Below the pieces are notes generated by a model. That model worked only from the letters and a program-made list of their open reading frames with translations. It was not told the DNA's origin and searched no databases. The position numbers and the translations under genes are program-made. From IMG/VR virus record IMGVR_UViG_3300033141_002936, positions 1 to 49,113 of that record: a DNA stretch of 49,113 nucleotides; one strand, written 5' to 3'. Below, one piece after another: positions 1 through 22,325 of the stretch (its first letter is position 1; every line of letters starts with the position of its first letter). The stretch is from a virus.

Positions 1-477
1 ACATAAATCTTTCATCTGCTTTGCTTCGATTTCTGTGATTGTTAGTTTAATCCGTGAAACCCACTTTGGCATACGGCATGATGGTTGCCATTTCGTAACT
101 TCTCCGCCTATTTGCGGTTCATGTTCAGTAGCCCTGTAGTGTGGAATAAGATAATAATACCCGACAATATCATTGATTCTTTTAATAGGTCTATCATGCC
201 TAAACATTTTTAATGCTTTTGCAGTTTCTTTACGGTCATATTCAAATGTACTTTCAATTATAAAAGTTTCCCGTATCCAAATGGTATCATTAAGGGAATA
301 CGGAGAATACTTCTTTCTACTTTTTAATCTTCTTATTGGTAGAGTATCATTAAGGGAATACGGAGAATACTTCTTTCTACTTTTTAATCTTCTTATTGGT
401 AGAATAATCAAGTTTTTCCTATTTTCAAGAAACGCTTTAACTTCCCACTCGCGGGCATCATATGGATGGGTGTTCAT
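1..477 (-). CDS. ASCH-like phage protein, partial at the window edge
   Basis: This reading frame is open for 159 codons and runs off the left edge, so the C-terminus is missing. Its layout matches small phage proteins of the ASCH-like group: an N-terminal EWEVKAFLENRK (family form: VRAILEGRKTQTRR), then SPYSLNDTIWIRETF (family: PYGxPGDxLWVRE), and later CRMPKWVSRIKLTITEIE (family: HMPRWASRITLEVT). ASCH folds bind RNA or modified nucleotides, but the substrate here is unknown. The ATG lies one base after the stop of the upstream gene, so the two are probably co-translated. The odd part is a 20-residue segment present twice in tandem, from LPIRRLKSRKKY to SPYSLNDT, caused by a perfect 60-bp DNA duplication. 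The family normally has one copy. Confidence 0.6.
   Translation of the reverse strand, partial: MNTHPYDAREWEVKAFLENRKNLIILPIRRLKSRKKYSPYSLNDTLPIRRLKSRKKYSPYSLNDTIWIRETFIIESTFEYDRKETAKALKMFRHDRPIKRINDIVGYYYLIPHYRATEHEPQIGGEVTKWQPSCRMPKWVSRIKLTITEIEAKQMKDLC
284..403. repeat. Perfect 60-bp tandem duplication inside the ASCH-like gene
   Basis: Bases 284-343 and 344-403 are identical. The unit is 60 bp, a multiple of three, so the reading frame stays open and the protein gains 20 residues. No base has diverged between the copies, which suggests a very recent slip or an assembly artefact. Confidence 0.95.
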
Positions 478-843: not shown

Positions 844-1572
844 TTAACTATTAGCCAAAATAATTTTAATTTCAGTTCCGGATTTTCTTCTTCGTCTAAA
901 TGAAATATCATACTTAATAATACTTTTTCCCCATTTAGATTGCAAATATTTGATAGATTCACGTTCAAGTTCTTTAGTTCTATAATCGACACAACCACCA
1001 CTATTAGTTAGATGTTTCACACTGAAAAAATATTTTGTAAACTTTATAGCATACTTATATTTCAATATAGTTTGTAGAAAAAAATCATAATCCTCTTTTA
1101 ATTTTAAATTTTCATCAAATCTTTGTCCATCATTAACAATTCCCATCATATTCCCAACTATAACATTACAAAAATATATCGGTTTAAAATATCTATATAG
1201 GAGTCTATCACTATTAACAGAATACCCAAACAAATTAGTTCCTACATCATCACACATATCAAATCCATTTTCAAACAAACTATCAATTTCATTTGGTTTT
1301 AAATTTTGTTTTTTTCCGTTTTCATGATATTGAACCGTAACAGCGTCATCATCTATCATAATAACATTTTTACACTCAGCATTATCAAGAATATAATTTC
1401 TTGTGGCAGTTATTCCATAAATACTATTTGGAACACTCATAACCTCTTCATGATATTTCCTATATTCATCAACTTCGTTTTTCGGTACACAAATTATAGG
1501 ATTATTAACGAGCTTATGAGTTGTTACTTTACCTGCTCTTCCTTTAGATGGTATATATATTTGAAACTTCAT
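844..1572 (-). CDS. TAGT-like GT-A glycosyltransferase, second copy
   Basis: The protein (242 aa) starts IYIPSKGRAGKVTTHKLV and has the metal-binding motif VIMIDDDAV near residue 92. It also has LKEDYDFFLQ near residue 160 and a C-terminal TNSGGCVDYRTKELER. These are features of GT-A glycosyltransferases, specifically the TET-associated glycosyltransferase (TAGT) family that phages use to add sugars to modified DNA bases. It is a paralogue of the protein at 2806-3549: both share PSxxRAxK, NPIICVP, DDD and GG-YRT-E. The start overlaps the stop of the ParB-like gene by 4 nt (ATGA), which indicates translational coupling. The target base is not known, and no TET/JBP dioxygenase was seen in the window. 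Confidence 0.65.
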   Translation of the reverse strand: MKFQIYIPSKGRAGKVTTHKLVNNPIICVPKNEVDEYRKYHEEVMSVPNSIYGITATRNYILDNAECKNVIMIDDDAVTVQYHENGKKQNLKPNEIDSLFENGFDMCDDVGTNLFGYSVNSDRLLYRYFKPIYFCNVIVGNMMGIVNDGQRFDENLKLKEDYDFFLQTILKYKYAIKFTKYFFSVKHLTNSGGCVDYRTKELERESIKYLQSKWGKSIIKYDISFRRRRKSGTEIKIILANS

Positions 1573-2174
1573 CTTTCAATCAACGAAATTAATTTTTCAC
1601 CGAATATAATTCGTCCAAGCCCAATACCAGAATCTCTATATGCTGACCGTTTCTTTTCAAGTTGAAAATATTCACAAATAGCCTCAAACTCTTCTCTATT
1701 ATCAAAAATGAAAACTATATAATCGTGAAACTTCTTTAATTGCTCAGACAACTCATATTCTTTGTTTACGTTATAATCAACTTTTGTGATAAGATTTTCA
1801 ACTTCACTAAAATCGAATCCAGCAAGCACTAAATCAGATTCATCTTTGATTTGATTCAATAATTTAACCAATAACTCAGAATCCCAATCACCACGAATTT
1901 TATTCAATGCAAGATTTAAAAGTTTTGCTCGTTTTTCTGAAATATCCAAAACGATACATGGCACTAATTCATATCCAAGTTCTTTAGCTGCATTATACCT
2001 CTGGTGTCCTCCGATAATCTCATACTTGTTTTTGTTTTTCCGTACAATAATCGGGTCCACAAACCCAAACTCATTTATACTATTCTTTAACTTTTCAAAA
2101 CTATCTTTAGTTATTTTTCTTGGATTATACCTATTCGGAATTAGTTTTTCAATTTTAATATTTTCAATTTTCAT
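1569..2174 (-). CDS. ParB-like (Spo0J/Srx fold) protein, second copy
   Basis: Residues 1-90 form a ParB N-terminal-type domain: IEKLIPNRYNPRKI followed by IIGGHQRYNAAKELG, the phosphate-binding box of the ParB/sulfiredoxin fold. These domains can use nucleotide triphosphates or act on DNA. Residues 145-201 form a C-terminal domain (FHDYIVFIFDNREEFEAI, then YRDSGIGLGRIIFGEK) shared with the ParB-like protein at 3550-4203. The gene overlaps its glycosyltransferase partner by 4 nt. Such ParB/TAGT pairs are known in phage DNA-modification loci, so a role in selecting or activating modified bases is likely but is an inference. Confidence 0.7.
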   Translation of the reverse strand: MKIENIKIEKLIPNRYNPRKITKDSFEKLKNSINEFGFVDPIIVRKNKNKYEIIGGHQRYNAAKELGYELVPCIVLDISEKRAKLLNLALNKIRGDWDSELLVKLLNQIKDESDLVLAGFDFSEVENLITKVDYNVNKEYELSEQLKKFHDYIVFIFDNREEFEAICEYFQLEKKRSAYRDSGIGLGRIIFGEKLISLIER

Positions 2175-3549: not shown

Positions 3550-4203
3550 TTATCTTTTCTCCCACAACTCTTTAAACTTTTTAAATTCAACAACTCTTGA
3601 TTTTCCTATATAACTATTTTTATATGATTTTTTATTCTGTAATTGTAAAGCATTCTCAAGATATAAGAAATCAAGTTCGTTTGTCGTGAAAATAATAACA
3701 TAATCATATTTTTCATCAAACCGTTTTTCAATAGGATACTTTACTTTTTGATTTGCTTTTATATCTGATTCCATATTTTTCAATATGTCATTCTCATCAA
3801 AACCTATATCATCAAGATAATCATTTTTAAATGCATCAGTAACTATCTCGTTTAGCATATTTTTTTCCCAGCCACTAAATTCGTTTGTTCTATTATCCAT
3901 GATTGCATATTTCTTTTGAGTTTCCTCATCGTCGTCATGCATAATAACAGGAACAAACCATTTTCCATTTTTTTCGATTATATATTTGGGTGGTTTTTCG
4001 TTATTCTTTTTCATGTTTTTAAGGGCTTTTATTCTACCATGTCCACACTCTATTTCAAAATTATTCTTATTCACTTCAATAGGTTTTCTCATATCATATT
4101 TTTTAATAGACGTTTTAAGAATTTCCATGTTATGTATTCGTGGATTTTTTTTCCATTTCTTAAGTTTATCTATATCCACATACTGTATTTTCAGTTCAGA
4201 CAT
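3550..4203 (-). CDS. ParB-like (Spo0J/Srx fold) protein, first copy
   Basis: Residues 5-75 are a ParB-type domain: VDIDKLKKWKKNPRIHN, then FEIECGHGRIKALKNM as the phosphate-binding box. Residues 95-130 include DDDEETQKKYAIMDNRTNE, as in ParB-like proteins of phage modification loci. The last 60 residues (YDYVIIFTTNELDFLYLEN to IGKSRVVEFK) match the C-terminal domain of the copy at 1569-2174. The ATG follows GGAGGTGCTATAG and is the first gene behind a promoter-like core at 4249-4258. It heads the five-gene block of ParB, TAGT, RarA-like, ParB and TAGT. Confidence 0.65.
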   Translation of the reverse strand: MSELKIQYVDIDKLKKWKKNPRIHNMEILKTSIKKYDMRKPIEVNKNNFEIECGHGRIKALKNMKKNNEKPPKYIIEKNGKWFVPVIMHDDDEETQKKYAIMDNRTNEFSGWEKNMLNEIVTDAFKNDYLDDIGFDENDILKNMESDIKANQKVKYPIEKRFDEKYDYVIIFTTNELDFLYLENALQLQNKKSYKNSYIGKSRVVEFKKFKELWEKR

Positions 4204-10237: not shown

Positions 10238-10597
10238 TTATTCGGTAAAATCGAATTCAGAAGGATTTTCGTTTCTCCTCTGAATTCTAACGAATTCTTC
10301 ATATTCTTCTTTGGTCATCCCTTGGCGAAAACCCTTGTAATGGGTCATCGCTTCTTCGATTTCTCTATATTTTGAGAAATCGAAGAATGAATAAATTTTA
10401 TTCATTGTTTCGAGTTTAATAGTGGCCCAACTCATGCCACCATTAAACGCGAACAGGATTTCTTGAGGTTTAAAATTACCAACCCCAAGAACTCCTCTTT
10501 TTTGGAGTTTTGGAATGAAGAAATTAATAAATTCATTACCCTCTTGATAGAGGATAATTTCCGTTTCATTTACTGTTTTGATTTTTAATTCCTTCAT
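10238..10597 (-). CDS. Hypothetical protein, 119 aa, first gene of the early unit
   Basis: No family recognised. It starts MKELKIKTVNETEIILYQEG after AAAGGAGGACAAA, the exact site that the predicted small RNA at 5017-5100 could cover. Residues 60-119 are helical and charged (YSFFDFSKYREIEEAMTHYK, MTKEEYEEFVRIQRR). The gene follows a promoter region that is duplicated at 18881-18951. The lack of any gene between this promoter and the zinc gene at 10795 marks the start of the early unit. Confidence 0.6.
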   Translation of the reverse strand: MKELKIKTVNETEIILYQEGNEFINFFIPKLQKRGVLGVGNFKPQEILFAFNGGMSWATIKLETMNKIYSFFDFSKYREIEEAMTHYKGFRQGMTKEEYEEFVRIQRRNENPSEFDFTE

Positions 10598-10612
10598 TTT
10601 GTCCTCCTTTAT

Positions 10613-10683
10613 TTTCTATATATAAGCTAATAAAACACACACTAAAAGTCAAGCTTTTTTTAAAAAAATTTAATTTTTTTTGA
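10613..10683 (-). promoter_or_regulatory. Early promoter, duplicated copy A
   Basis: The minus strand has TTGACT (10647-10652) as a -35 box and a weak -10 about 17 bp downstream. Upstream is an A/T tract that could act as an UP element. Forty-five bases (10639-10683) are identical to 18907-18951, and the leader from TATATATAG to AAAGGAGGACAAAATG is nearly the same. Bases 10684-10794 between this and the next gene show nothing else. Confidence 0.65.
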
Positions 10684-16604: not shown

Positions 16605-18272
16605 TTATATTTCATTTATAATTCTTTTCTTATTTTCAAGAATGAAATCATTTAATTTGCTTTTTCTCTTTAAAGCACTCATTATTACATGATTAATAGT
16701 ATTCTTATTCATATTCTTTGAAAGTAAATTTATATAAGTCATTTTCTTTTTTTGTCCATGTCTATCAATTCTTCCATTTGCTTGGACGTAACTTTCATAA
16801 CTGTAAGTCTGAGAATACCAAATACAATAATTCGCAGACGTCAACGTCAATCCATGTCCCGCCGTTCCAGGATGAGCAATCATTAACTTACAATTATTAT
16901 CATTCTGAAACCTATCAATATTTGATTCTCTTACCTTTTGTGGAGTTTTACCATACATAGTTACAGCACTATATTTTTTACTAAATTTTTCAAATATCAT
17001 TTGAATCGATTCAGCATACGTTGCCCAAATAATTACTTTATTTTTGTTGCTGATTATTTCCTCGAGTAACGTTTCAAGCTCTTGGATTTTACTTGGATTA
17101 TCTAATCGGTAAGATTTATCACCACTATAAACAAATCCATTAGTTATTTGATTTAATTTATTCAATTCATTCAATATAGTATTCAACGGAATTATTTCAT
17201 TTTCCAGAATAATCAACGCTTCTTCTTTTGCCTGTTTATATGCGTTAGATTCTTCTATAGAAAGTTCAACGTCTCTTTCAACGAATATCTTATCAGGCAA
17301 ATCAAAACAATCATCTTTTTTGAACGAAATAGAATATGCATCTATTTTGTTTTTGATTTCGTTCATAGCCTTTTTACTTTTAACTTTCCATTCATATCCA
17401 CCGTATCCAGAAGGATAAAAATATTTATCTTTAAACCGATAAAAATTATCTCCAAAAATTAGTTCATTCATGAATCTCATTTGTGGGAATATCTCAAGCA
17501 ATGAATTTGGCGTAGGTAATCCACTCATAATTGACCGATATTTGAAATTATTGTTCTTTAATATATTCTTTGTAACTTTAGCTTGAATGTTTTTTATTTT
17601 AGTGCTTTCATCAAGAATACACATATCAAATTTTTTTTCTCTAATCTCATCTATTACTCTCCAAGCACTGGCATAGTTAATAATATAAACTTTATAATTC
17701 GTATACTTAAGAATATATTTGTTTTTTTTAGAACCATAATCAAGGACACACCAAGAAATTCCAGTTGTAAACTTTTTAATATCATCAACCCATGCTTTAT
17801 ACATGATAGATTTTGGACAAACAATTAAAACTCTATCAATTAGATTTTTTTCAAATCGGTATTTTATAAGAGCTATTTGTACGGCTGTTTTTCCAGTACC
17901 AACTTCAGAGAAATCAGCAAAACTTCCTCTTGTTAGACCGAAAGCAAAACTTGTTTCTTGATGAGCGAACAAAGTTTTTTTTAGTCCAGGTATTAACTCT
18001 TTTTTGATTTTAATTTTATTAGTTTTTATTCGGTGAGCCAGTTTATCGATTCTTTGCATTTCGTTTTCAAACTCTATGAAAATCGAATAGTTTTCTATTG
18101 GAATATTTAATTGTTTGATTTTCTCTATATTATCTAACGTAGCTTTAGCAATCCATATTTTTGAATTTTTGTTCCATTTTAAATCAAGCCCAAGAGATTT
18201 AACAGCATTCCTTTCTTTATATTCAGATTTAATAAGAAATTCATTGTTTTCTCTATGAAACTTAATTTTCAT
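16605..18272 (-). CDS. SNF2-type superfamily 2 helicase
   Basis: The 555-aa protein has an N-terminal HARP-like region (residues 1-75). Its helicase core shows motif I FADFSEVGTGKTAVQIALIK, motif II MCILDESTKIKN, motif III SIMSGLPTPNS, and later motifs NKVIIWATYAESIQMIF and QANGRIDRHGQKKKM. These are the signatures of SNF2/SWI2-type DNA translocases as found in many phages (DEST in place of DEAH). The start at 18272 follows TGGAGAACAG. A promoter-like motif at 18303-18329 and terminators just upstream show that it begins a new transcription unit. Confidence 0.85.
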   Translation of the reverse strand: MKIKFHRENNEFLIKSEYKERNAVKSLGLDLKWNKNSKIWIAKATLDNIEKIKQLNIPIENYSIFIEFENEMQRIDKLAHRIKTNKIKIKKELIPGLKKTLFAHQETSFAFGLTRGSFADFSEVGTGKTAVQIALIKYRFEKNLIDRVLIVCPKSIMYKAWVDDIKKFTTGISWCVLDYGSKKNKYILKYTNYKVYIINYASAWRVIDEIREKKFDMCILDESTKIKNIQAKVTKNILKNNNFKYRSIMSGLPTPNSLLEIFPQMRFMNELIFGDNFYRFKDKYFYPSGYGGYEWKVKSKKAMNEIKNKIDAYSISFKKDDCFDLPDKIFVERDVELSIEESNAYKQAKEEALIILENEIIPLNTILNELNKLNQITNGFVYSGDKSYRLDNPSKIQELETLLEEIISNKNKVIIWATYAESIQMIFEKFSKKYSAVTMYGKTPQKVRESNIDRFQNDNNCKLMIAHPGTAGHGLTLTSANYCIWYSQTYSYESYVQANGRIDRHGQKKKMTYINLLSKNMNKNTINHVIMSALKRKSKLNDFILENKKRIINEI

Positions 18273-18302
18273 CTGTTCTCCATTCAAGAGTCGATTCTAT
18301 GA

Positions 18303-18745: not shown

Positions 18746-18865
18746 CTAAAGATTATTCCTGAACTTTATTTTCAACTGAATCATCCTCAATGATTCAATT
18801 TCTTTTTGAATTTGAGATTTTTCAAGTCCAAAGAATTTCTTGATTGCTTTTTTAATTCTGTCCAT
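18746..18865 (-). CDS. Small basic amphipathic protein, 39 aa
   Basis: The protein starts MDRIKKAIKKFFGLEKSQIQ and ends KIKFRNNL. It would form an amphipathic cationic helix. The ATG follows AAAGGAGGACAAA, identical to the site before the gene at 10597 and fully complementary to the predicted small RNA. It is the first gene after promoter copy B. Function unknown. Confidence 0.6.
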   Translation of the reverse strand: MDRIKKAIKKFFGLEKSQIQKEIESLRMIQLKIKFRNNL

Positions 18866-18880
18866 TTTGTCCTCCTTTAA

Positions 18881-18951
18881 TTTCTATATATAAATTAAAG
18901 GAATATACACTAAAAGTCAAGCTTTTTTTAAAAAAATTTAATTTTTTTTGA
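18881..18951 (-). promoter_or_regulatory. Early promoter, duplicated copy B
   Basis: TTGACT (18915-18920) with a 17-bp spacer to TAATTT (18892-18897), preceded by an A/T tract. The 45 bases 18907-18951 are identical to 10639-10683. It lies between the end of csf3 and the two small genes, so these do not need csf transcription. Confidence 0.65.
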
Positions 18952-18999: not shown

Positions 19000-19665
19000 T
19001 CAATTGCAGTCGTATAACGCCTTAATTATTTTTTCTTGATTTTGAGGTAACCAATAGGGAACTTTCCATGCACCAAAAGTTTTTTCATAATGAGGAATAT
19101 GTTTAAATATTCTTTTTAAATCGGTCTCACTATAAAAACCAGGCAATGGACGGTAATAGACAAAACTATCATCATATTCTTTTTCAATCGTAAAACCACT
19201 AAACCACCCAAACCCTATTTTTATTTTTTTACCAATACCAATTAAATATTTGTCAACCATTTTTTTTACTTTCGTCGCATCACCAGAAAAATAAAACCAA
19301 ACATTTTTTGTCGATACAATGTTTATAGGAATATTATAAGATTTGAATTTCCCCGAACCTGTATGTATTCGTTTTTTCGTGTTTCCAAAATTAACTATAT
19401 AATCATATTTGTTTTCCCATCGTTTTTTCCATGTGTCTTGTCCTTCACAATTATTATCCAAAAACATATATGAAGCTAAATAATATCCATCTTCATGTTT
19501 ATCAATCGGAATATCAAAATTTATTATTTCTTTTCCAGTTGGAGTATGAAAATCAGTAACTAATCGTTGTTTTTGATATTCACAGTACATTACCATTGAA
19601 TCAAAAATAGGTTTATCTATAAACGATATAGGAGAAGTCATATTGAATGTTATTTTATATATCAT
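19000..19665 (-). CDS. csf3: Csf3-like (type IV Cas5-like RAMP) protein
   Basis: This 221-aa protein has the layout of Csf3, the Cas5-type subunit of type IV CRISPR complexes. It has an N-terminal ferredoxin-like strand (MIYKITFNMTSPISF) and a stretch YYFSGDA-like VWFYFSGDATKVKKMVD. A glycine-rich RAMP loop LIGIGKKIKIGFGWFSGFTI (about residues 145-165) and a C-terminal YRPLPGFY...VPYWLP follow, as in Csf3. The start at 19665 is chosen because GGAG lies at 19675-19678; a TTG five codons upstream would contain that SD. It is the last gene of the operon. No Cas6-like histidine site is seen. Confidence 0.7.
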   Translation of the reverse strand: MIYKITFNMTSPISFIDKPIFDSMVMYCEYQKQRLVTDFHTPTGKEIINFDIPIDKHEDGYYLASYMFLDNNCEGQDTWKKRWENKYDYIVNFGNTKKRIHTGSGKFKSYNIPINIVSTKNVWFYFSGDATKVKKMVDKYLIGIGKKIKIGFGWFSGFTIEKEYDDSFVYYRPLPGFYSETDLKRIFKHIPHYEKTFGAWKVPYWLPQNQEKIIKALYDCN

Positions 19666-19680
19666 TATTTTTTTCTCCAA

Positions 19681-20451
19681 TTATACATATTTTTTTATAA
19701 ACGGGTCTATTGTAACTAATTTGTTATATACTTCCCTATAGTGATATTTTAACCATTGAATATCACCACGACAAGAAAAATTTCCGGGAATTGTCCACGA
19801 TTTCCTAATAAGACGAGGGTCATTTATAAATTTTAGTTTCCAATATATATTGAATATTTCTATGTTGTTTGATAATAAATATGCAAAAACGTCATCACCC
19901 TTCCATTCTGCAATCGGAGTGCAAATCAATATTTTTTCTCTGTTGTTTTTATAAATTGTTCCTCTATATTTTCTATTCCATTCCCTCCCCTTGCTTTCTT
20001 CTGCTCTTAATCCAAGAAATACACCATCATTATTGTTTTTATTTTTATAGTTTGAAATTAAAGAATAGAAAAACTTATTAGAAAAATCTGTATTTCTGGA
20101 ATGCATATCTTCATCAAATTTATAATTTTGAATTTCATCCCACAAGGAAACAGATGGATTTATTATATCTAAATTCAAATTATACTTTTCTTTCAATCTA
20201 AATACATACTCAATTTCACCCGGATAATCAAGGTCATCTTTTTCTGTCATGATTTTTATATCAGGACAATTTTCAAGAATCAAAAATAACATAGCAGTTG
20301 AATCCTTACCAGCACTCCAAGAAATATATGGATTATTAACCTGTGACAAAAAAACATCTATAATTTCTTTTGATTTCTGGATTCTTTTTTTGTGAATATC
20401 TAAACTGGAATATTCCAAAAAATATTTTATCCATCCTTCTTTATTTAACAT
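19681..20451 (-). CDS. CysH/PAPS-reductase-like PP-loop protein inside the csf operon
   Basis: The 256-aa protein has the PP-loop ISWSAGKDSTAML near residue 45 (SGGKDS in CysH), GLRAEESKGREW near 150 and PIAEWKGDDVFAYLLSNN near 180. This is the core of PAPS reductase and DndC-like nucleotide alpha-hydrolases, which activate a substrate with ATP or a nucleotide. The C-terminal ECGLH motif of true sulfate-assimilation CysH is missing, so sulfate reduction is unlikely. A cysH-like gene is a hallmark of type IV-B CRISPR loci, with unknown function. Here it sits between csf2 and csf3 and overlaps csf2 by 11 nt. The ATG at 20451 has AAAAGAG upstream. Confidence 0.75.
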   Translation of the reverse strand: MLNKEGWIKYFLEYSSLDIHKKRIQKSKEIIDVFLSQVNNPYISWSAGKDSTAMLFLILENCPDIKIMTEKDDLDYPGEIEYVFRLKEKYNLNLDIINPSVSLWDEIQNYKFDEDMHSRNTDFSNKFFYSLISNYKNKNNNDGVFLGLRAEESKGREWNRKYRGTIYKNNREKILICTPIAEWKGDDVFAYLLSNNIEIFNIYWKLKFINDPRLIRKSWTIPGNFSCRGDIQWLKYHYREVYNKLVTIDPFIKKYV

Positions 20452-21625
20452 CAAAAAACTCTTTTATATTGTTTTTGTTCTCTTCAATATAATTGATATA
20501 TAATTCGTTTGACTTTCTTGGAATATTAAGTTCCGATAAATCGATTTCCGCATTTCCGACAGCCCTCATTCCACCTATAAAAGGATTTTCTTTAAACAAA
20601 AACAATAAATGCCAAAACGTTGAAACTAATAATGGATTAAAATCAAACATTCTGAACCCATGATTAAATATTGTACCAGGTGAAAATACTTCATATTCAT
20701 ATTTCATTTGGTCAGGTTCCTCATGTTCACCTACTATCTCAATTTCTTTTTCTGTCTTTGAACTATCACTTCGTGTTTGGAATATCGTATCAAGGTATTC
20801 CCAAAACGATAATTTTCCTGTTCCTAATTCTCTGCATACAGGATATGCCATCCCCACAGAAACCATTCCCTCAATAGTCATATTACCTATAGCTGCACCA
20901 AGAACACCAATTATAGGACACATTGCAATTAATTTTTCTCTCTTTTCTATATCTTCATACATTGTTGATTCATCAAGAACACCACCAGTAAAAAGAATAT
21001 GATAATTGTCTTTTGAGATTTTAGTTATTCCAATTTTATCTATGAAATCATGCATTCCAAGTCTTCGTATAATCCCCCTGATACTATTACCTGAAACTAT
21101 CGGTATCATTTCATAAGTCTTAATATACTTATCTTTCTTAATATCTTCTTTAAACATATCTATATTTTGTACATTTTTTTCTTTTGCACGTTTTCGTAAT
21201 TTTAAAATAATATAATGAGCATCATTTCTAATTGTTTCCAATAATTCTTCATCGCTTATTTTTTCAAAAACATCTACAATGTTTATATTGTTAATACTTC
21301 TAATATCCCATGAAACACATAATTCATTTAAGAATTGACGTTTATTCCTGACAGTTGCCGCTCTTAATAGTTTAGAATACCATTCATCCCACAAACCCAT
21401 AATTCGTTTTTGTTTCATATTATCAAAATTAATTGATTTATGGACAGCTATTAATATTTGTACAATAGCTTCAACTCTTTCATCATCATTGAAATATGAA
21501 CTATATTCATTTTCATGATGTAAAATTATTTTTTGACGTCTTAAACTTTTAAGAATTCCAAGATTTTTATCGCTGCCAGTATGAAGCGGCGTCTTTGTTT
21601 TGAATTGGTAATCAATTTTTATCAT
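20441..21625 (-). CDS. csf2: Csf2-like (type IV Cas7-like RAMP) protein
   Basis: The 394-aa protein begins IDYQFKTKTPLHTGSDKNLG, a typical RAMP opening where a strand is followed by TPLHxG. EMIPIVSGNSIRGIIRRLGM (about 170-190) is the 'PxIPGNSLRGxLR' motif of Csf2. Then come CPIIGVLGAAIGNMTIEGM and VFSPGTIFNHGFRMF, and near the end FIGGMRAVGNAEIDL in the place of the glycine-rich loop. Csf2 forms the backbone that holds crRNA in type IV complexes. The start follows AAAGGAGAAAAAACA and overlaps the csf1 stop by 4 nt (ATGA). Alternative: another Cas7-type RAMP, such as a Csm3 relative. Confidence 0.75.
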   Translation of the reverse strand: MIKIDYQFKTKTPLHTGSDKNLGILKSLRRQKIILHHENEYSSYFNDDERVEAIVQILIAVHKSINFDNMKQKRIMGLWDEWYSKLLRAATVRNKRQFLNELCVSWDIRSINNINIVDVFEKISDEELLETIRNDAHYIILKLRKRAKEKNVQNIDMFKEDIKKDKYIKTYEMIPIVSGNSIRGIIRRLGMHDFIDKIGITKISKDNYHILFTGGVLDESTMYEDIEKREKLIAMCPIIGVLGAAIGNMTIEGMVSVGMAYPVCRELGTGKLSFWEYLDTIFQTRSDSSKTEKEIEIVGEHEEPDQMKYEYEVFSPGTIFNHGFRMFDFNPLLVSTFWHLLFLFKENPFIGGMRAVGNAEIDLSELNIPRKSNELYINYIEENKNNIKEFFDVK

Positions 21626-22269
21626 TGTTTTTTCTCCTTTTTTGAAAGTAAATGTAAAACAAACTCAAACAGTTTTGTATATTTATATTGACAAATATTA
21701 TCAACAATTGAATAAAAATTAGGTATATCATCTATTAATTTATATTTCTTATAATAACCAGACTCCAATTCTGACTTAGAAAATCCTTTTTGATATAAAT
21801 AGTCGAGACTATCATATACAAACTTAAACTTATTAACATCAATCAATAATCTATATTTGTCAGTCGCAACCCATACATTTTTGTTGTATTTATTAATTAT
21901 TGCATTAAAAAAGCAGTGTTTCTTGTGAGAATACGTTACCATCAATATCGATGGTAACTCTATGTTTAATATAATATTATATACATCTGATTTATTGAGT
22001 ACTCTAATATTATCTTCAGTTATTAATAAATTATATGAACGAATTGCTTTGCCGTTAAATGATTTACCGTCCATGCATGCTTGACAATATTTACAGATAT
22101 AAGATGAATCATATTTGCAATATTGCCAATCATTAAACGTTGAGGATAACGTTTTTTTGTAATGTAGTCCTCTTACTATTTCTCTACCACATATCTTACA
22201 TACAGTTTTGTTTATATGAGGCACTCGTTTTATCTTTAAATGTTTAGCTATAAATTTCGTTGGTATCAA
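21622..22269 (-). CDS. csf1: Csf1-like (type IV large-subunit-like) zinc protein
   Basis: About residues 20-70 carry a zinc finger, KTVCKICGREIVRG and YICKYCQACMDG. Then comes ILMVTYSHKKHCFFNAIINK, matching the 'S-KKH' motif that follows in Csf1. Position and length (215 aa) also fit Csf1, the Cas8-like first gene of type IV loci. The start is uncertain. TTG at 22269 is chosen for the AAAGGAGGAG at 22274-22283; ATG at 22296 or an upstream TTG would include that SD. The ATG inside the leader is out of frame. This is the weakest of the three csf calls and rests largely on its neighbours. Confidence 0.6.
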   Translation of the reverse strand: MIPTKFIAKHLKIKRVPHINKTVCKICGREIVRGLHYKKTLSSTFNDWQYCKYDSSYICKYCQACMDGKSFNGKAIRSYNLLITEDNIRVLNKSDVYNIILNIELPSILMVTYSHKKHCFFNAIINKYNKNVWVATDKYRLLIDVNKFKFVYDSLDYLYQKGFSKSELESGYYKKYKLIDDIPNFYSIVDNICQYKYTKLFEFVLHLLSKKEKKQ

Positions 22270-22298
22270 AACATAACTCCTCCTTTTAATTCTCATAT

Positions 22299-22325
22299 TA
22301 TAATATAACATAAGAATTTGAAAAA
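22299..22325 (-). promoter_or_regulatory. Promoter-like motif TTTTTCA-N10-TTATATTATA before csf1
   Basis: The minus strand has TTTTTCA, ten bases, TTATATTATAA, so a TATAAT -10 is included. It has the same spacing as the motifs at 807-833 and 18303-18329. It lies between the late gene that stops at 22371 and the csf1 SD. Confidence 0.55.

What the first reader, a model, noticed from the sequence alone, without database searches (positions are those of the whole stretch)
19000..22325. Phage-borne type IV-like CRISPR effector operon: csf1-csf2-cysH-csf3 without array or adaptation
Four minus-strand genes overlap or nearly touch (csf1/csf2 by 4 nt, csf2/cysH by 11 nt, cysH/csf3 15 nt apart). Seen directly: a zinc protein with a SHKKH motif, a RAMP with the PIVSGNSIRGIIRR motif, a PP-loop protein and a RAMP with a glycine-rich loop (IGKKIKIGFGWF). 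Known: csf1, csf2, csf3 and a cysH-like gene make up type IV-B loci, which usually also have cas11 and lack adaptation genes. Inferred: this is a reduced phage version with no cas11, cas6, dinG or array. It may bind a non-CRISPR RNA or a host guide, and it could be used against rival phages, plasmids or host defence.
Basis: partly seen in the sequence, partly recalled or inferred. Interest (0 to 1): 0.92.

Follow-up and report, generated by a model that had tools for sequence, protein, structure and literature searches.

The report
Phage CRISPR complex with nested subunit
A bacterial virus carries a small set of CRISPR-type genes (type IV-B) in which one building block of the RNA-binding complex has been inserted inside another; 17 further viral or metagenomic contigs share this layout, which I could not find described, and it offers a simple handle on a CRISPR type whose job is still unknown.

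Summary
In detail: csf1-csf2-cysH-csf3 form a compact minus-strand operon (19000-22269) in a tailed-phage contig, and curated type IV profiles hit all three csf genes. It is a type IV-B effector locus, but cas11 is not missing. Residues ~45-152 of the 394-aa Csf2 are a complete type IV Cas11, inserted in the N-terminal beta-hairpin of Cas7. Evidence: PADLOC Cas11 hits in 17 of 17 tested members, a 99.4% profile-profile match to free Cas11, and an AlphaFold model of the insert (pTM 0.83) whose only confident PDB match is the Cas11 of the solved IV-B complex. Eighteen contigs share the insertion, form one clade (100/100) and lack a separate cas11; where measurable the insert is under purifying selection (dN/dS 0.05-0.09). 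Two other viral loci carry an independent N-terminal Cas11-Csf2 fusion. The nesting fixes Cas7:Cas11 at 1:1 in an RNA-coating filament (6:5 in the solved complex). Function and guide source remain unproven; one nested contig carries an 11-repeat type I-C-like array about 1 kb away. New variant of a known kind.

The parts
21622..22269 (-). csf1 (Cas8-like subunit of type IV); TTG start preferred, the ORF runs to 22368
   Evidence: PADLOC typeIV_Cas8 9.3e-30; TIGR03114 9.1e-8, below cutoff; start from ribosome site and relatives
20441..21625 (-). csf2::cas11, 394 aa, Cas7 with a nested Cas11
   Evidence: PADLOC typeIV_Cas7 8.4e-45 and typeIV_Cas11 1.6e-9 in one ORF; AlphaFold pLDDT 81, pTM 0.75, PDB matches to type IV Cas7
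21518..21625 (-). Cas7 part 1: N-terminal hairpin (residues 1-36)
   Evidence: Aligned by eye with the N-termini of free Csf2 proteins; strands at 2-10, 18-22, 25-28, 30-32 in the model
21170..21493 (-). Nested Cas11 (residues about 45-152)
   Evidence: PADLOC Cas11 hit 52-150; hhalign 99.4% to free Cas11; model pTM 0.83 matches 7jhy chain g, prob 0.97, TM 0.70
20441..21124 (-). Cas7 part 2 (residues 168-394), with the SGNSIRG motif
   Evidence: PADLOC typeIV_Cas7 168-391
19681..20454 (-). cysH-like gene (CasCysH), PP-loop protein
   Evidence: PF01507 5.3e-19; SxGKDS invariant in the aligned relatives, no conserved C-terminal cysteine
19000..19665 (-). csf3 (Cas5-like); ATG start preferred, the ORF runs to 19680
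   Evidence: PADLOC typeIV_Cas5 3.5e-33; TIGR03116 1.9e-11, below cutoff
22297..22324 (-). Promoter-like sequence in the csf1 leader (TTTTCA-16-TATAAT); weak
   Evidence: 10 of 12 matches, but such sites are no commoner than in shuffles; a similar element precedes the SNF2 helicase gene (2 found against 0.69 expected)

Best explanation
It is a complete phage-borne type IV-B effector module in which the small subunit Cas11 is nested inside the backbone subunit Csf2 (Cas7). The fused protein should polymerise along an RNA as a filament with one Cas11 built into every Cas7; Csf3 (Cas5) and Csf1 (Cas8-like) would sit at the end, and the PP-loop CasCysH would act as an ATP-using partner enzyme. No guide is encoded in the window and no nuclease was recognised in the module, so the complex would have to load RNA supplied in trans (host or other-element crRNAs or other small RNAs) and act by binding, masking or modifying nucleic acid in conflict with host defence or rival elements. 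Shown: gene identities, nesting, a single origin, purifying selection in relatives, co-inheritance with csf1 and csf3. Inferred from the solved IV-B complex: the RNA filament (about 0.75 likely). Inferred with little direct evidence: RNA in trans and a conflict role (about 0.4).
For: Type IV profile hits for all subunits; insert fold matches IV-B Cas11 and whole protein matches type IV Cas7; hhalign 99.4%; none of the 18 nested loci has a separate cas11 whereas 82 others do; one clade, 100/100, Csf3 and Csf1 trees largely agree; dN/dS of the insert 0.05-0.085; no internal start for a free Cas11 in the window; the solved IV-B complex is a 6 Csf2: 5 Cas11 filament on RNA (PMC7937560); L011 has a CRISPR array beside the operon.
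Against: No experiment and no complex model. The Foldseek E-value of the insert is weak (0.57) although probability and TM-score are good. In the solved complex the RNA was mostly not CRISPR-derived, so a guide may not be used. Only one of the nested contigs has a non-Cas12 array, and it may be host DNA.
Confidence: 0.65

Rival explanations
1. Guide-independent RNA coat or sponge: the fused filament binds cellular RNAs without sequence preference, soaking up crRNAs or other small RNAs, or coating phage or host RNA, and never recognises a target.
For: The expressed Mycobacterium IV-B complex held mostly expression-plasmid RNA of regular length (PMC7937560); no array in the window.
Against: Does not explain the conserved CysH-like partner with an invariant SxGKDS loop, nor the array next to the operon in L011.
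Confidence: 0.35
2. RNA-guided targeting with crRNAs borrowed from a host or phage array (for example type I-C-like), with CysH modifying the recognised nucleic acid.
For: L011 carries 11 perfect type I-C-like repeats with 10 spacers about 950 nt downstream of its operon and no other cas genes on the contig.
Against: One contig only, the array lies at the contig end and the leader side is missing, so it may belong to the host; no spacer target found.
Confidence: 0.25
3. A reduced type IV module that has lost cas11.
For: No separate cas11 ORF in the window.
Against: A full Cas11 sits inside Csf2.
Confidence: 0.02
4. Artefact or decaying gene: the fusion arises from misassembly or frameshift, or the module is dead.
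For: All members are uncultivated contigs or MAG contigs.
Against: Eighteen contigs of varied GC content (0.27-0.55 for those read in full) have the same insertion point in intact ORFs down to about 38-40% identity; a second contig (L002) has the window protein at 100%; dN/dS is about 0.05 in three relatives.
Confidence: 0.02

Closest known systems
Type IV-B CRISPR-Cas (csf1, cas11, csf2, csf3 plus cysH-like; solved complex PDB 7jhy, PMC7937560)
   Same: Same subunit set, CysH-like partner, no array or adaptation genes in the window, carried on a mobile element.
   Different: Cas11 is not a separate gene but an insert in the N-terminal hairpin of Csf2; subunit ratio fixed at 1:1.
Bathyarchaeia virus (Fuxiviridae) type IV-B locus (PMC10848311)
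   Same: Virus-borne type IV-B with cysH and no adaptation module.
   Different: It has a mini-array with two repeats. From its paper the Cas11 protein was analysed on its own, so it appears unfused.
Cas7-11 of types III-E and III-I (PMC12669027)
   Same: Cas7 and Cas11 domains in one polypeptide.
   Different: There several different Cas7 domains and one Cas11 follow in series in a single effector; here one Cas7 is interrupted by one Cas11 and the chain must still polymerise.
Type I-C cas11 encoded within cas8 (PMC11127173)
   Same: Cas11 encoded inside another cas gene.
   Different: There it lies at the 3' end of cas8 and is made as its own protein (the latter from general knowledge); here no usable internal start precedes the domain in the window.

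Membership tests
Type IV-B | csf1, csf2 and csf3 of type IV | tested here: met
   PADLOC 9.3e-30, 8.4e-45, 3.5e-33
Type IV-B | cysH-like gene | tested here: met
   PF01507 5.3e-19; PP-loop kept, no conserved catalytic cysteine, as described for CasCysH (PMC8175902)
Type IV-B | Cas11 small subunit | tested here: met
   Present as a nested domain, not as a gene
Type IV-B | No array, cas6 or adaptation genes | tested here: met
   Repeat scans of the whole window and PADLOC on 30 of its proteins; the contig may be incomplete
Type IV-B | Assembles into an RNA-bound Csf2/Cas11 filament | not testable with these tools
   Only inferred from PDB 7jhy (PMC7937560)
Type IV-A | DinG helicase, cas6 and array | tested here: not met
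   None found; the helicase at 16605-18287 is SNF2-type
Type IV-C | Cas10-like large subunit with HD domain in place of csf1 | tested here: not met
   csf1 present; no Cas10 hit among the scanned proteins
Cas7-11 (III-E/III-I) | Several Cas7 domains plus Cas11 in one chain | tested here: not met
   One Cas7 and one Cas11 per 394-aa chain

The most novel reading that the evidence does not exclude
A virus-specific branch of type IV-B has been condensed so that one repeating polypeptide supplies both filaments of the complex. It loads crRNAs made by other CRISPR systems (such as the type I-C-like array beside one member) and uses CasCysH to modify the recognised nucleic acid: RNA-guided phage warfare without nuclease or array.
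Probability: 0.15. Interest if true: 0.88.

Novelty: new variant of a known kind. Interest (0 to 1): 0.6.

Why it matters
Type IV-B has no known function: neither its natural RNA nor the role of CysH is known. A form with Cas7 and Cas11 locked 1:1 in one chain simplifies reconstitution and makes the Cas7-Cas11 register testable. The 18-member clade, and a second, independent Cas11-Csf2 fusion, suggest that joining these subunits has happened at least twice in type IV. The loci also suggest that virus-borne type IV-B is more widespread in uncultivated viruses than the few published examples imply.

Tried and rejected
1) Missing cas11: rejected. 2) Internal translation of a free Cas11, as in type I-C: no start codon between residues 30 and 69 in the window and no conserved one across members. 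3) The 102-nt duplicate at 18850-18951 and 10582-10683 as a guide RNA or repeat: it is a promoter and ribosome-site region before a small gene at each place. 4) Rfam scan: nothing. 5) Array search: none in the window; among the nested contigs fetched only L011, and one in G009 that lies beside a Cas12f gene. 6) Spacer targets of L011: no match in INPHARED, only self in IMG/VR for two seeds; other viral contigs with the same repeat carry no csf genes in the stretch held. 7) Conserved neighbour genes as a clue to function: none in more than 3 of 18 nested loci. 8) Net charge of the Cas11 inserts: variable, not informative. 9) INPHARED phages: no relative of the protein at E 1e-5; plasmids: partial matches only, none covering 80%. 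10) BFVD: no structure match with E below 0.001. 11) Pinilla-Redondo 2020 was not in the library.

Full report
OBSERVATION. The four ORFs, their strand, overlaps and motifs are as described. PADLOC assigns Csf3 (3.5e-33), Csf2 (8.4e-45) and Csf1 (9.3e-30) to type IV, and Pfam assigns the fourth gene to the PAPS reductase domain (5.3e-19). NCBIfam equivalogs are hit below cutoff, so the proteins are divergent. Likely true starts are csf1 TTG 22269 and csf3 ATG 19665. The contig is a tailed phage: large terminase, head protease, tape measure, endolysin, primase, SNF2 helicase. The operon follows the tail/lysis genes and precedes the replication genes.

In the same PADLOC scan, residues 52-150 of the 394-aa Csf2 match type IV Cas11 (1.6e-9), while residues 168-391 match Cas7. 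The first 36 residues correspond to the N-terminal hairpin of other Csf2 proteins (aligned by eye). Cas11 is therefore inserted into Cas7. Separate cas11 genes sit just upstream of csf2 in plasmid IV-B loci, and 82 of 109 loci examined have a separate cas11.

TESTS OF THE INSERT. (a) All 10 members of the first alignment and the 7 further nested members tested match type IV Cas11 models. (b) Profile-profile comparison of nested inserts with free Cas11 gives 99.4% probability. (c) AlphaFold2 of the insert has pLDDT 90 and pTM 0.83; its alignment also held free viral Cas11 rows. The top PDB match is chain g of the type IV-B complex 7jhy, prob 0.97, TM 0.70; no other hit exceeds prob 0.12. The Foldseek E-value is weak (0.57), as can happen for short helical bundles. 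(d) AlphaFold2 of the whole protein (pLDDT 81, pTM 0.75) matches type IV Cas7 structures, 7jhy among them. (e) In three related members (L103, L104, L089) dN/dS of the insert is 0.05-0.085, like the Cas7 parts, while the linker is looser (0.12-0.16). For the window protein itself the synonymous sites are saturated, so selection there is inferred from its relatives. (f) No start codon lies between residues 30 and 69 in the window, so a free Cas11 made from an internal start is unlikely.

DISTRIBUTION AND HISTORY. Nested members: the window, L003, L009-L016, L100, L103, L104, L106, L108 (IMG/VR) and L087-L089 (MAG contigs; L087 carries what look by eye like phage recombination genes). They form one clade (100/100) with a sister pair L022/L031 that has free cas11. 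Csf3 of the nested loci also forms one clade; Csf1 does too, apart from one long-branch row (quick trees). Gene order varies and no other neighbour gene is shared by more than three loci, so the subunits travel together. L075 and L084 carry an N-terminal Cas11-Csf2 fusion in a separate clade; their Cas11 match is weak (2e-3 for L075; 0.0018 for L084). No relative was found in INPHARED, and no plasmid match covers 80% of the protein.

HOW IT MOST LIKELY WORKS. The solved IV-B complex has six Csf2 and five Cas11 around RNA of about 55-60 nt that was mostly not CRISPR-derived (PMC7937560). A nested Cas11 gives a 1:1 ratio, close to 6:5, and removes the need to recruit the small subunit. The window CysH keeps the SxGKDS loop but, as in other CasCysH (PMC8175902), there is no conserved catalytic cysteine in the family. 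The RNA remains unknown. No array is in the window. One nested contig, L011, has an 11-repeat array of type I-C-like repeats (the type assigned from general knowledge) about 950 nt downstream, but it lies at the contig end and may be host DNA. I therefore commit to an RNA filament with RNA supplied in trans and a conflict role, the last step being conjecture.

KNOWN OR NEW. Type IV in phages and an archaeal virus is published (PMC11656645; PMC10848311). Cas7-Cas11 fusions are known for III-E and III-I (PMC12669027) but with several Cas7 domains in series. Searches of the open-licence literature found no description of Cas11 nested in Cas7 of type IV; subscription papers and preprints were not searched, so prior description cannot be excluded. 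Verdict: new variant of a known kind, interest 0.6.

Noticed in passing
L011:10416-11106: CRISPR array of 11 perfect 32-nt repeats (GTTTCAATCCACGCCCCCGCGCGGGGGGCGAC, type I-C-like on the other strand) with 10 spacers on a viral contig with a nested Csf2; the leader side lies at the contig end.
   Followed up: partly
L148:3347-4895 (contig of L100): Mini-array of about 4 repeats just upstream of a 434-aa Cas12f-like gene (PADLOC Cas12f 1.2e-74) on a virus that also has the nested type IV-B operon.
   Followed up: partly
L075:867-2261 and L084:7494-8720: Csf2 with a Cas11-like domain fused to its N-terminus: a different topology in a separate clade.
   Followed up: partly
L006, L007, L009, L015, L108 and others: A second, long (340 aa or more) CysH-family gene lies near the csf operon in 19 loci, in L006, L007, L009, L015 and L108 with a ParB-like gene close by.
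   Followed up: no
L103, L104, L089, L108, L014, L015 and L106 csf1: Csf1 of one nested sub-group has lost most of the paired cysteines of the zinc motifs while keeping the KKH-type motif in most members.
   Followed up: no
L097:3360-3600: Four degenerate repeats with a period of about 71 nt upstream of a csf2-csf1-csf3 locus without cas11 or cysH, in a Bacillota MAG.
   Followed up: no
window 1569-2174 and 3550-4203: Two short ORFs match the N-terminal part of the same type II methyltransferase model (5.5e-33 and 9.3e-9); the region also holds a 114-nt repeat at 1441 and 3421.
   Followed up: no
window 284-403: Perfect tandem duplication of 60 nt near the left end of the contig.
   Followed up: no
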